From Symbiodinium sp. CCMP2592 (Eukaryota > Sar > Dinophyceae > Suessiales > Symbiodiniaceae): 64,000 nucleotides of DNA. The notes under the pieces were generated by a model. That model saw only the letters and a list, made by a program, of their open reading frames with translations, had not been told where the DNA came from and made no database searches. The DNA is taken from contig CAJNDT010000324.1 of the NCBI GenBank assembly GCA_905221615.1, positions 124,001 to 188,000 on the forward strand. Direction: 5' to 3'. A program made the translations under genes and the position numbers. Every line of letters begins with the position of its first letter. The first letter of the stretch is position 1. Positions 16,201 through 40,200 of this stretch are shown piece after piece.

Positions 16201-19200
16201 ACAAAAGGGGTATGTTATGGCAGTTCAAAGTGATTGCGAAATACTTAACCTTTATCAAAATGTAAATCCTAAAGCGGCCTCAGAGGTTTAGGGGGTTTCA
16301 AGGGGAACCGAACCTTTAAACCACCTTAGGGTTTAGGGCTTCAGGATTGTGTGTCTAGGGCTTACCTGGACCCCAAAAATATGTAGAATAATCGCCCTTT
16401 ATTTGGGTCATTATTTGACCTACTTTGGGGGGGCTTAGGTAAGAACTGAGGCAGACGCCGGGATTGAGGTTAACCACGAAGAGAAGATCGCCACGCTCGA
16501 AGACAATCACCTTGTCCTCCTGTGCGCGCGGCTCCGAACAAAAATCCCTAAAACCCTAATCCCTAAACCCTAATCCCTAAACCCTAATCCCTAAACCCTA
16601 ATCCCTAAACCCTAATCCCTAAACCCTACTCCCTAAAACCCTGATCCCTAAACCCTAATCCCTAAACCCTAATCCCTAAACCCTAATCCCTAAAACCCTA
16701 ATCCCTAAACTCTAATCCCTAAACCCTAATCCCTAATCCCTAAACCCTAATCCCTAAACCCTAATCCCTAAACCCTAATCCCTAAACCCTAATCCCTAAA
16801 CCCTAATCCCTAAACCCTAATCCCTAAACCCTAATGCTTGCACCCAAGGGCTCCGTTCCCCCCACCTCATCTCTTTGCCCTGAGATCTCACACTTGTGTC
16901 TTTCAACCAACCAACCAACCTAAACCCTAAAACCCCGAAACCCTGAACCCCAATCCGACAGATAGAGATTTGGGTGTACTATACTGAACTTAGAACCCTC
17001 GCAAAAAGTATAATTTAGCTGTTCTTAGGGATTATAACAACACGAAAATTAAAATTATTTCCAAGTACCCCTAAGTGTAGTGCAAGGCCTCCCAAATCTT
17101 GCTGCTCTCGGACTGACAGGCTATGCTAAGCAGGGTCATTACGGTTGATGATATAAATCCTGCAATACCCACACTAAGGAATATGCCAAAATTCTCATGG
17201 TTTAGGGTCCTTAAGGTAATGCAGGATTTATATCATCAACCGTTAGGTCTGTTTCTCTTTGGACTCTTACCCTAAGTTCTCCAAGAACTTAGAGTTTGAG
17301 GCTTCTGGGCCCGAAGACCATGCATGGAGGTCCATGGGCAGTTATAAGTAGGGTTATACCTGAGGTAACCATACTTTTAACCCATATTAGGGGACTTATA
17401 ACCCCACCCTATATCTACCCATGAACCTCCAAGTACTACATATATCAGGCTTCGGGCTGTTTTGAGGCTTGGTCTTAGACTAGGATACCCAGTATCCTAA
17501 GAATAAAAAGGCCTCTCTTTTTGGTATTGGGTAACTTTAAAGGAACCTAGGACTACAAAAGGGAATAAGGGTACTACTGGGCATCCTAGTAGAGCTTGGA
17601 GATAGGGCTTCTAAGGTTTGGAGTGGCTTTCTGTCCCCCGACATGGATCCAGCCCCAATGCCCATAACGGACAAGGTCCCAAATCTGTGGGACTTCCGTC
17701 GCACACTCAAAGCGTTAGATGTCGGACTCCATGCCCAAAACAACATACCCTAAAGCCTTGCCTGTGCCCGATAATCCAAATCCTCTTAAACCGACAATTT
17801 CCTAAACCTCCCTCGGCCCGCCAACTCTGAACCCCAAAGCCGCACGCACAAATACGACACTCTAAATCCGAAACCCTAAAGCCGAAAAGTCTCTAAACCC
17901 TACGAACCCTGCCCTAAACCTGATACACCCGATACCCGACAAACTACCGTAAACCCTATACTCCATACCCTGAACCGTACCCTCAACCTTACTCTATACC
18001 CAAAACCCTACCCTGAACTTTATTTACTTTAGTTAATACCCCCAAACCCTGAACCCTTTACTCCATACCCTAAACCCGACATCCCCAAAGGGTAAAGTAT
18101 GAGGCCTCATGCTGGCTTGAAACCAGAAGATGCTCGTCACTGGCGAATCCGGTGCTCTCCTGTTCCCACTTGGCGATTTCTTTCCTTAACCCTTTGCGCC
18201 GAACCAGAACCACAGGGTTTAGATCAACAAGGCTTATATGAAAGGAACCCAAAATCTCATTTTTGTATGTGGTTGGCTTTATTTGTGTTTAAAAGTGTTT
18301 TTTTGTATTTAAAAGTATTGTTTTGTATTTAAAAGTTTTTTAAATAGGTTTTTTTGTGTTTTACAGTTGTTAAAATTCTTTTATTTTATTTTTGGTGTAA
18401 AAAAATACATGTTTGTGAATTTTGTTTCTGAGTGAGTCAATTGGCTTCCTGTTGTTCTACCTGGTTTCCTGCTGCTGTATGTCTACAAAATTGTTGTTTA
18501 TTTGTTGTTGAAGTTAATAATTTTTAAAATTTAATCTTTTTAAATAGTTTTGGGTTGTGATTGAACAAAGAAGGGAGGCCGTAGTGACATGTTGACTTGC
18601 CTTGAGACCTTGCCCTTACCCACACGGATCGACTGCCCATCTCGGTTCGTGGACACCGTTGGCCGGGTGTCAGGTGCTGAGTCGATGGTACCTGGACCGC
18701 CTTGGGGCCAACGTGCCAGGGCAGTGGCATATGACACCCGGGCACATGGGCTAAAGTGCCGGGTGGGGGGGTCCAGTGGTTGCGGCTTGATTTGTTCTCC
18801 CAACCAGGAGGGGAGGCCATCCATGCTTGTCACGTTAGTTAGGGAGCCTTGCGACTTGGATCGACAGAGGCAGAGTGCCACCTTACCCACACGGATCGAC
18901 TGCCCATCTCGGTTCGTGGACACCGTTGGCCGGGTGTCAGGTGTTGTCGATGGTACCTGGACCGCCTTGGGGCCAACGTGCCAGGGCAGTGGCATATGAC
19001 ACCCGGGCACATGGGCTAAAGTGCCGGGTGGGGTGGTCCAGTGGTTGTGGCTTTTTTATTTTTCTCCCAACCAGGAGGGGAGGCCATCCATGCTTGTCAC
19101 GTTAGTTAGGGAGCCTTGCGACTTGGATCGACAGAGGCAGAGTGCCAGTCGAGCCTCTCGAGGTTGCCTTACTTAAGTCCCTGCCCCATCGGGGTTGCTC

Positions 19201-37200: not shown

Positions 37201-40200
37201 CATCTGGAAGTTGCTAGAGGGCGCTGCAAAAAGTGGGACCTCTTTGCGACAAGCCCTCATTCTCAAGAACCAGGACGAACGCAGCGACCTGCATGGTTCC
37301 TTGGTGATTTGATATGGAGTAGAATGTTGTTTTGTTAACCAGTTGTTTAAGATTAGTGAATTCTTTGTCACACATTCATTTGATGCCACGTACCCGCGCC
37401 ACAGTCGAACTAAATTCGACTACCGCTCTTGCCATGGCCGACCCGACGTTCGGCTCTTGCGCCAAGCTGTTGGCCAAGTCCAGCAGAAGGTAATGTCGGG
37501 GGCAGAAGTATCCGCTGCGAACTCTGGGATGGCACCACGACGACCACGACGTCCTGCTTCTTTGCGAGCAGAGGGCGACATAAGCATAGCGCGGGCAAAT
37601 GCTTGCAGCTGCTAGTGGTCGTTGAGAGCCTCATATCCCCATGGCAGAGCGGGGTGACCCCATATCTCGGCCGAATGGGGGTGGCCTAAGTCTCCGGTCC
37701 GCATGACTGTCAGAGCACGTTCGTCTTTGCAAAGACGCCGGGGAGGCCGTTACAGAAAGGGATGCTTAAGTCAGGTTGTGCATTTAATATTTATGAAAGG
37801 CAGAGTGCCAGTAAAACTTCTAAGGGTTCAGGGTTTAGTGGTTTGCTGCGCTTGCTGTTGATCAGAAAATCCTTGTCGATTCGCTTGCCGGCATGTGGAG
37901 GCATGTGTGTGGCCGCTACCCAGGACTCGCTGTGTCTCGCACAGGGCTCTGAGGGAAGAACGTAGTGCAGGGCAACTTATAGTCGCACACCATTAGCCGG
38001 GGTCACTTCCCTGAGGGTTCGCTAGTGCAGGGCAGCTTGTAGTTCACACCGTTAGCCGGGTGTGGCGGGCCGCTGTTTGGGATTTTCGGGCTCTTGAGGC
38101 CAACGGGGATCTGCTGACCAGATCCCTATGACAGCAGGACACATGGGCTAACGTGCCTGCTGGGAGCCCCCCATTTATGTCTCTGCACGCTCTGGCTAGC
38201 CAGTAGTCAGTGCGAGATGATGACCCACTCGGTGGCAGCAGGGGAGGCTCTTGAACTGTTGATCGACCGAGTGCGCAACATGGAAGGCCGAATCGAGTGA
38301 GTAGTCATTAAGTGTCAGGTTGTGATCAAATTTATGAAAGGCAGAGTGCCAAAGGCAGAGTGCCAGTAAAACTTCTAAGGGTTTTTTAGTAGGGTTTAGT
38401 GGTTTGCTGTGCTTGCTTTTGATCATAAACGTCCTTGTCGATTCGCTTGCCCGACCTAAACCTGAGCAGCGGGCTGGCCGAGGGGGCCCTAGAGACCTGC
38501 CAGGTTCCATCTTGTTGGCCGTGTTGGGGGCAGCGATCCATCCGGAGCTGAAAGCTTGGCCACTGACGCCTGCGTGGCCTCGTGGCGGCCACCCTTGGGG
38601 CCAACTCCCCTACAGCCCGAGGGGTATGACAGCAGGGCGATGCGCTAATGCGCCTGCTGGGGGTGGCTTAAATGGGGGGCGGGTGTGTCCTTCCCCCCCC
38701 GGTGAGATCCTAAAAGGGAGGCCGCTTGAGTTGTGTTGTAAAGAGAAGGGTGAGATAGTGCCTTCTTCAGTTCTTGCCTGTGCTCACTTTTGCGCGCAAG
38801 TGGCCCTGGGATCAGGTCTATCGTTGATCGTTTGGCATGGCCTGTAGTGGCAGTGTAGCAGCCTGCTGTAAGTTTCCACTACCCCAGCCGCCAGCTGTGC
38901 CTAGAGCCTGCTACTCACAGGGTGATTTCGGCCTGTGCCTGGTTTGTTTCTATCGGCGCGTTGCGGGCGATGTTTACGCCGAAGCAAACCAAGTCTCCGG
39001 GATCTGTTACATCGCAGGTGTGCAAATGGCCTGCTGAGCAACAGCTGCGACGGGATCCGGCACAGCGCTGTCATCTTAATTCATTCCCTGTGAGCATGGC
39101 GACCCACCTTGGCCGAGTGGGTGGATTTCAGCAAATGGGGGAGGCCGCTAACCCATGATTAGGCTATATCTCTTTCTGCTGAGCACATGCTTTCTGTTCT
39201 CTTGGATCGACGACAGAGGCAGAGTGCCGAGGCAGAGTGCCAGTCGAACCTCTTCGGTGTTGCCTTACCTAAGGAGTAAACCCCTGCCCCACCAGGGTTG
39301 CTCCCCACACCATTGGCCATGTGTGAGGCGTTCGGTTTGCCTGTGTCACAGCCTTGAGGCCAACCTATCCCAGGGGCAGGGGGTAGATGACAGCCGGGCA
39401 CATGGGCTAATGCGCCGGCTGGGGCTGTGACCTGGTGACATCGAAGCAGTCATGCAAGTCACCGGAAGCAATACCGGACAAAGAAGGGAGGCCGTTCTTG
39501 GGACATGGCTGTGTTGTTGAGCTGGTGTGTTCCTCCGTCTCATTCATAGTAGAATGTTGTTTTGTTAGCCAGTTGTTTAAGATTATAGTGAATTCTTTGT
39601 CACACCAACCTTACCAACAAGTCGCGGTGTGTCCAGTTTTGATTCACCAGCCGCGCTTGCATGCCGATGGCCGGGCATGGGTTGTCACACGGACCTTACC
39701 AACAACTCGCGGTGTGGCCAGTTTTGATTCACCAGCCGCGCTTGCATGCCGATGGCCGGGCATGGGGTCGCTGTGGGGGACCGTGGAAGACGGAACCGAA
39801 CGAGGACTTGGGGCCAACCACCAGAGCGGACACCTGGTGATGACAGCCAGACACATGGGCTAACGTGCTGGCTGGGTCCGAGCTCGGCACCCGAGTGTCC
39901 CCCTTTGCAACATGGGAGGCAAAATATCGAGCAGAAGTACAGTAATTAGAGTGTCAGTCGAACCTCCTCAAGGTTGCCTTACCTAGCTGGATTTTCTGCG
40001 ACCTCGGATCGTGTTGTCCGGGCCAGACTTCCAGGTTCCGAACAAAGAAGGGAAGCCGTCCGTTCTTGGGACATGGTTGTGTTATTGAGCAGAGAACCTT
40101 GCTTGGCTTGCTGTTCGGTTGTGTTTGTCGAAGGCAGAGTGCCAACATGTTCAGAATGGGGTTTGGTGTGTGTTGCTCTACCAAGCGGCAGCTGCATGCC

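What the first reader, a model, noticed from the sequence alone, without database searches (positions are those of the whole stretch)
18869..40143. An 11-bp hairpin motif (GGCAGAGTGCC) peppered through one gene island in all three reading frames
Seen: about 55 exact copies in 21 kb, one exact reverse copy, and no exact copy noticed in the flanking 41 kb. Copies lie inside exons (most often read GRVP, less often RQSA/GQSA, once AEC), in introns and between genes, singly or in tandem 15-18 bp apart. A 12-bp step (motif plus A) keeps frame and adds no stop in any plus-strand frame. This behaves like a DNA- or RNA-level element that spreads into coding sequence, not a protein motif. The near-total strand bias follows the direction of the genes, which suggests selection or insertion at the RNA level, or a function in transcripts (hairpin GGCA-GAG-TGCC).
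Basis: partly seen in the sequence, partly recalled or inferred. Interest (0 to 1): 0.92.

Follow-up and report, generated by a model that had tools for sequence, protein, structure and literature searches.

The report
Strand-locked 11-letter tag filling giant transposon
A 29-kilobase jumping element, present in many copies in a single-celled alga's genome, carries the same 11-letter sequence dozens of times, almost always on the strand its genes are read from and cutting across all reading frames, which suggests a sequence label read in its transcripts rather than in its proteins.

Summary
In detail: 56 exact GGCAGAGTGCC copies (55 plus, 1 minus), all in 18,869-40,143; shuffles give 0.02. The gene island is part of a giant DNA transposon in a 1.1-Gb genome, by its relatives a dinoflagellate's. 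It has terminal inverted repeats (416 exact ends, control 0), 5-bp target-site duplications, ~28.7 kb length and ~5-kb non-autonomous derivatives. The window holds its left 22.7 kb; an assembly gap cuts the rest. The motif occurs 20,442 times genome-wide (reversed-word control 244). In sampled DNA it stops at the element ends: 0 copies in 174,871 outside bases. It reads in three frames and outside ORFs. Relatives 46-66% identical in protein keep the exact 11 letters where two overlapping frames fix them. Short derivatives (4 of 4 read), which evidently moved, carry no gene-direction copies, only two reversed copies near the right end, so the dispersed copies serve genes or transcripts, not DNA mobility. 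Best explanation: a multivalent cis-acting recognition tag in the element's RNAs (inferred; 0.45). Rivals: DNA-binding sites, or a functionless local micro-repeat. Clean 12-bp insertions into motif-free orthologues were not shown; local tandem gain was. The genome-wide share of copies outside the element remains untested.

The parts
18183..40908 (+). Left 22.7 kb of a giant TIR transposon (full length ~28.7 kb, from window left part plus C1 right part); the rest is replaced by an assembly gap
   Evidence: 99.4% identity to C1, sharp left edge, TIR match at 18190, length
18183..18225 (+). Left terminal inverted repeat, TCCTTAACCCTTTGCGCCGAACCAGAACCACA...
18869..40143 (+). Stretch holding 55 forward copies of GGCAGAGTGCC
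32828..32838 (-). The only reverse copy in the window, outside the listed ORFs
40909..41008 (.). Assembly gap of 100 N that cuts the element; in C1 it continues for a further 5,968 bases to its right TIR
19547..20769 (+). Two tandem paralogous ORFs (19547-19915, 20398-20769), each with one GRVP-frame motif
21217..22515 (+). Phosphatase-like ORF (HCYGGINRT), 1 EAEC-frame and 3 RQSA-frame motifs
   Evidence: weak tyrosine-phosphatase matches in PDB, best E 0.17
25043..28924 (+). Long ORF, kinase-like by eye only (DLHENN); 8 GRVP and 1 RQSA downstream of the likely start, 2 copies upstream of it
   Evidence: no Pfam match at E 0.001; AlphaFold model too poor to use
30130..31753 (+). RING-type gene, apparently with an intron; 3 GRVP-frame motifs
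   Evidence: zf-RING_2 E 3.1e-4, below the curated cut-off
33204..34265 (+). Proline-rich ORF with [14 protein letters not shown]
34546..35703 (+). C5-cytosine-methyltransferase-like ORF with one RQSA-frame motif
36260..37312 (+). Unknown ORF with two GRVP-frame motifs
   Evidence: no Pfam match up to E 1
18690..19045 (+). Two copies (18690-18780, 18955-19045) of a structured RNA element near the left end
38082..40364 (+). Five further copies of the structured RNA element (38082, 38570, 39343, 39796, 40266)

Best explanation
GGCAGAGTGCC is an element-specific, sequence-exact tag of a giant DNA transposon, read on the RNA (transcript) strand. The element's + strand transcripts carry dozens of copies, often in pairs, so that a trans-acting factor, encoded by the element or recruited from the host, can bind its own RNAs multivalently and single them out from host RNAs for export, stability, translation, silencing escape or self-regulation. 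Shown: the tag, its strand and frame independence, its confinement to the element in the DNA sampled, the lack of forward copies in coding-free derivatives, and exact conservation in diverged relatives. Inferred: that transcripts are the functional molecule, that a factor binds it, and which step it serves. The short hairpin GGCA-GAG-TGCC is possible but weak.
For: 55 of 56 copies lie on the gene strand; 67 forward and 1 internal reverse copy over the 28.7-kb element, the other 9 reverse copies lying in a right-end 94-bp array. Three frames and outside ORFs. Short derivatives L109-L112 (4 of 4 read) have 0 forward copies yet kept both ends. 0 motifs in 174,871 bases outside versus 98 in 41,364 bases just inside 27 element ends. 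In 29 relatives (12,181 residues): GRVP 30 (0.25 expected), [RG]QSA 39 (0.5), AEC 13 (1.4). Two-frame readings force GGCAGAGTGCC in all solutions, 2 of 2, 8 of 8 and 2 of 2. RQSA is invariant in 11 of 11 aligned phosphatase rows.
Against: No transcript data. The hairpin is weak (-4.4 kcal/mol for 14 nt), and the 7 one-mismatch copies on the + strand of the element show no paired compensatory change, though two of them keep a G-U pair. Recent copies lose motifs at about the neutral rate (2 of 29 changed against 2.6 expected; 1 of 46 and 1 of 50 in the two C1 pieces), so selection is not visible among copies within this genome. The reverse copies in the right-end array sit on the wrong strand for the gene transcripts and are kept in short derivatives, which fits a DNA role at that end. 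At the methyltransferase site P0014 reads RQRA and P0019 RQGA, and the distant P0026-P0029 have no motif peptide.
Confidence: 0.45

Rival explanations
1. DNA-level binding site: an element-encoded DNA-binding protein (transposase, regulator or the methyltransferase-like protein) recognises the near-palindrome to mark, regulate or fold the element's DNA; the right-end array is its transposition site.
For: The motif is near-palindromic. The right end carries it in reverse in 8-9 copies in 6 of 6 TCATTGC-type right ends and in 2 copies in 4 of 4 TCATTGA-type right ends examined (two of the six, L099 and L108, share their flank and may be one insertion). Clusters of short motifs near ends are usual for transposase sites (recalled: Ac, En/Spm).
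Against: A near-palindrome needs no strand, yet 67 of 68 copies in the body share one. Four of four short derivatives that evidently moved lack all dispersed forward copies.
Confidence: 0.27
2. Functionless micro-repeat: the motif multiplied inside the element by slippage, gene conversion or template switching, and is only tolerated because 12-bp steps keep frame and bring no stop.
For: Tandem copy-number change seen (14 bp; P0009 versus P0011); clustering 10 versus 1.3 expected; near-neutral decay in recent copies.
Against: Exact retention in relatives 46-66% identical in protein; one strand only; 67 exact against 7 one-mismatch copies on the + strand of the element; no copies beyond the ends in the DNA sampled; equal-length differences at two sites.
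Confidence: 0.23
3. Protein-level repeat (GRVP) with codon bias.
For: 19 of 25 copies in the better-supported ORFs read GRVP.
Against: The other 6 read RQSA or EAEC; 21 of 55 lie outside the listed ORFs; one frame-shifted relative reads KAECQ from the same letters.
Confidence: 0.02
4. Host-side signal: the motif is a target by which the host recognises and silences or processes this element.
For: Element-specific in the DNA sampled and transcript-strand biased.
Against: An element under such attack should lose the target, yet it is kept in diverged lineages.
Confidence: 0.03

Closest known systems
DNA uptake sequences of Neisseria and Pasteurellaceae; Chi; HIP1 (recalled)
   Same: Short exact oligonucleotide dispersed through genes, read in whatever frame it falls
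   Different: Bacterial, genome-wide, and (uptake sequences, HIP1) on both strands; here tied to one eukaryotic transposon and locked to the gene strand
Rickettsia palindromic elements (recalled; search listing with abstract starts, no paper opened)
   Same: Repeated palindromic DNA found inside coding sequence
   Different: Those are 100-150 bp insertions (recalled); this is 11 bp, in all frames, tied to one mobile element
Subterminal transposase sites of Ac and En/Spm (recalled)
   Same: Short repeated motif within a TIR element; the right-end array resembles it
   Different: Known sites lie only near the ends; here 67 copies run through the whole gene body
Maverick/Polinton and polinton-like viruses (recalled; search listing with abstract starts)
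   Same: Tens of kb, TIRs, 5-6 bp target duplication, many genes, protist hosts
   Different: No polymerase B, integrase, ATPase or capsid match in the ORFs scanned
Dispersed RNA packaging or protein-binding hairpins of RNA viruses (recalled)
   Same: Many short sense-strand hairpin-capable signals through coding RNA
   Different: Those tolerate sequence drift; here the sequence is exact and the hairpin weak

Membership tests
Cut-and-paste TIR DNA transposon | Terminal inverted repeats at both ends | tested here: met
   CCCTTTGCRCCGAACCAGAACCACA, 181+235 exact, control 0+0, many of the listed places in convergent pairs (which lists about the first 100 of 416)
Cut-and-paste TIR DNA transposon | Fixed-length target-site duplication | tested here: met
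   5 bp in 6 of 8 end pairs, 9 bp inside a TA repeat in one (C1), none in C91, which has two left-type ends
Cut-and-paste TIR DNA transposon | Non-autonomous derivatives sharing the ends | tested here: met
   Four ~5-kb copies read, L109-L112; eight ~5-kb pairs among the places listed
Cut-and-paste TIR DNA transposon | Encodes a recognisable DDE transposase | tested here: inconclusive
   No transposase match in the ORFs scanned against Pfam and NCBIfam; not every ORF and no spliced gene was scanned
piggyBac | TTAA target-site duplication | tested here: not met
   TSDs ACTTA, AAGAA, ATCAG, TCCTG, TTAAT, TAGTA; TTAA on the left belongs to the element end TCCTTAA
Maverick/Polinton or polinton-like virus | PolB, retroviral-type integrase, ATPase, capsid genes | tested here: inconclusive
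   No such match in the ORFs scanned; not all ORFs or spliced genes were scanned, PHROGs was not searched
Rickettsia palindromic element | Palindromic insert of about 100-150 bp (recalled) | tested here: not met
   The repeated unit is 11 bp with at most A-rich neighbours
DNA uptake sequence | Mediates uptake of own DNA | not testable with these tools
   No experiment available

The most novel reading that the evidence does not exclude
A eukaryotic transposon labels its own transcripts with a self-identity code: an exact 11-letter word written dozens of times through coding and non-coding stretches in any frame, read by a dedicated factor so that the element's RNAs are told apart from the host's. 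The price is paid in protein sequence ([11 protein letters not shown]).
Probability: 0.33. Interest if true: 0.93.

Novelty: new variant of a known kind. Interest (0 to 1): 0.8.

Why it matters
If the tag is read in RNA, mobile elements can write a strand-specific identity code into their own genes, and it can be kept in diverged relatives while the proteins around it change. It would offer a simple handle for finding the reader protein and for asking how dinoflagellates, which control genes largely after transcription (recalled), tell element RNA from their own. Independently, a ~29-kb gene-rich TIR transposon with hundreds of ends, a methyltransferase-like gene and a covarying structured RNA is an unusual cargo-carrying element; no account of it was found in the eight literature searches made (listings only).

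Tried and rejected
Protein-repeat explanation: rejected (three frames, copies outside ORFs, two-frame reading). Viral origin: the pair pattern gave 2 contigs in the viral collection, phage-like by eye and each with one pair; no relative of the kinase-like or phosphatase-like proteins was confirmed there; the RNA hairpin pattern gave none. This does not exclude a viral ancestry. Prokaryote genomes: 54 stretches with motif pairs. The densest (L056, 10 copies) and four others were looked at by context, and their copies sit in longer local repeats; the rest were only counted. Known RNA families: none at gathering level, and among the 12 matches up to E 5 none at the structured RNA copies. piggyBac: TSD is not TTAA. 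Kinase-like model: mean pLDDT 37.6, not used. Literature: the motif letters occur in 12 papers, none on dinoflagellates by title; listings with starts of abstracts were seen; no paper was opened. 'Not found in print' rests on these eight searches of open-access papers alone. The first protein search scored only the 7996 candidates sharing most words. A search for motif copies with contexts absent from the element (GGCAGAGTGCCTV) and a one-mismatch genome count did not complete.
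Full report
OBSERVATION. GGCAGAGTGCC occurs 56 times exactly in the window, 55 on + and 1 on -, all between 18869 and 40143; dinucleotide shuffles give 0.02. The neighbourhood adds A-rich flanks (AAGGCAGAGTGCCA). Of 55 + copies, 25 lie in eight better-supported ORFs (19 GRVP, 5 RQSA, 1 EAEC), 9 in three less certain ORFs and 21 outside these ORFs (two frame labels printed by the script were swapped and are corrected). Neighbouring copies at most 45 bp apart, both within better ORFs, are spaced by multiples of three in 5 of 5 cases, and in the other 9 cases in 2, both in the less certain ORFs. 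So these ORFs behave as translated frames into which the motif has to fit. Introns were not modelled.

WHAT THE ISLAND IS. The window lies in a 1.098-Gb assembly of 5383 contigs, at C324:124001-188000. A second copy on contig C1 matches window 18182-40908 at 99.4%. The match begins sharply at the left, while on the right it stops because the window has a 100-N gap. The C1 copy, read on from the position of that gap, continues for 5,968 bases with more motif-bearing ORFs, then a 94-bp tandem array with nine reversed motifs, then an inverted copy of the left end. The C1 locus itself contains an assembly gap with about 14.7 kb of the element on both sides of it, probably a false duplication. Left window part plus C1 right part give 28.7 kb with 67 forward and 10 reverse motifs. 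A third copy, read for its first 10 kb (L113), is 98.9% identical to the window.

The terminal sequence CCCTTTGCRCCGAACCAGAACCACA occurs 416 times exactly (control 0). Among the roughly 100 places listed there are convergent pairs: six about 29-35 kb apart (C80, C305, C358, C422, C462, C469), four others 24-49 kb apart (C1, C4, C153, C677), eight about 5 kb apart, and some in between. Of 8 end pairs examined, 6 show a 5-bp direct repeat at the insertion point, one lies in a TA repeat (9 bp), and one, with two left-type ends, has none. Four 5-kb copies read in full share only the ends and a small internal repeat with the large element. This is a TIR DNA transposon family with a giant gene-rich form and short non-autonomous forms. 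No transposase could be named: no match to one in the ORFs scanned.

HOST. One relative is named Symbiodinium necroappetens (P0011). That protein joins a phosphatase-like part to a kinase-like part, the same order as the two ORFs in the window, so at least these two neighbours recur together elsewhere. That the window itself is a dinoflagellate's is inferred from these relatives.

DISTRIBUTION OF THE MOTIF. The genome holds 9890+10552 exact copies against 118+126 for the reversed word. In 27 of 28 element-end loci (the one whose end differs was left out), 98 copies lie in 41,364 inner bases and 0 in 38,850 outer bases. Over all outside DNA at hand, the window to the right of its gap included, 0 in 174,871 bases. 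Two of the end loci, L099 and L108, show the same flank and may be one insertion. 20,442 divided by 77 motifs per element is about 265 element equivalents, of the same order as 416/2 ends. This is consistent with most copies being inside the element but does not prove it; the planned search for other contexts did not complete.

CONSERVATION. Relatives of three of the genes were found: 3, 10 and 16 proteins. In these 29 (12,181 residues) GRVP occurs 30 times (0.25 expected on shuffling), [RG]QSA 39 (0.5) and AEC 13 (1.4). The four most distant methyltransferase-like proteins, P0026-P0029, have none, so the tag belongs to the element lineage rather than to the protein family. The RQSA of the phosphatase is invariant in all 11 rows. 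Three relatives (P0010, P0012, P0022) read motif DNA in a shifted frame; combining that frame with the ordinary frame of a close relative (P0009, P0015) leaves 8, 2 and 2 nucleotide solutions, all containing GGCAGAGTGCC. This assumes that the two proteins of each pair share the DNA there. These relatives are 46-66% identical to the window proteins. Against this: P0014 reads RQRA and P0019 RQGA at the methyltransferase site, and among near-identical copies within the genome motifs change at about the neutral rate (2 of 29 against 2.6 expected; 1 of 46 and 1 of 50), as expected for inactive copies.

GAIN AND LOSS. Local tandem duplication is one way of gain: the C1 copy has 14 extra bases, one more motif, at window 37799, and P0009 has three RQSA repeats where P0011 has two. 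A clean 12-bp insertion into a motif-free orthologue was not found. At two sites sequences with and without the motif peptide have the same length, so substitution or replacement also occurs.

MECHANISM. The strand lock, the frame independence, the multiplicity and the absence of forward copies from short derivatives that evidently moved point to a role tied to transcription of the element's genes, hence a tag in RNA, bound by a factor not yet known. The weak hairpin (-4.4 kcal/mol for the 14-mer) and the lack of paired compensatory change among 7 near-miss copies suggest that the sequence, not the fold, is read. The reversed copies in the right-end array, kept even in short derivatives (2 in each of 4), may be a separate DNA role of the same word, for example a transposition site. 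This paragraph is inference.

COMPARISON. It works like dispersed identity words (uptake sequences, Chi; recalled) but is not shown to be a member of any of them. The carrier is a TIR transposon by its ends and target duplications, not piggyBac by target site, and unplaced among superfamilies.

SIDE RESULTS. Seven copies of a structured RNA lie in the window, two near the element's left end and five about 20-22 kb further in: 96.1% of cells paired, 16 of 22 pairs with changes on both sides, covariation 0.745 against 0.19 in shuffles and at most 0.22 for slid structures (the structure was drawn by hand from these seven sequences, which favours it, and two of the seven are near-identical). The 34546-35703 protein models with mean pLDDT 78, and its best solved-structure matches are C5-cytosine methyltransferases, though weak (best E 2.6e-3, none at 0.001).

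AFTER CHECKING.

Noticed in passing
window 18690-19045 and 38082-40364 (7 copies): Structured RNA element with three covarying helices (16 of 22 pairs with changes on both sides) and a possible pseudoknot GTTGGCC/GGCCAAC (by eye); no Rfam match at E up to 5.
   Followed up: partly
window 34546-35703: Divergent C5-cytosine-methyltransferase-like protein encoded by the transposon (weak structural matches).
   Followed up: partly
C1:1147141-1147894 (L066): 94-bp tandem array near the right end of the element with nine reversed motif copies among CCCTAA-like sequence; short derivatives keep two.
   Followed up: partly
window 40909-41008 and C1 near 1171294: 100-N assembly gaps inside element copies; at C1 about 14.7 kb of the element is present on both sides of the gap, probably a false duplication.
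   Followed up: no
window flanks 1-18182 and 41009-64000: Many scattered degenerate CCCTAAA/TTTAGGG tracts.
   Followed up: no
L109-L112: Interiors of the ~5-kb derivatives are mostly unrelated to the large element and share repetitive proline-rich open frames of unknown origin.
   Followed up: no
L056 (Oscillospiraceae MAG): Bacterial local repeats with the same 11 letters inside a longer palindrome (GGACGGCAGAGTGCCGTCC), apparently unrelated.
   Followed up: no
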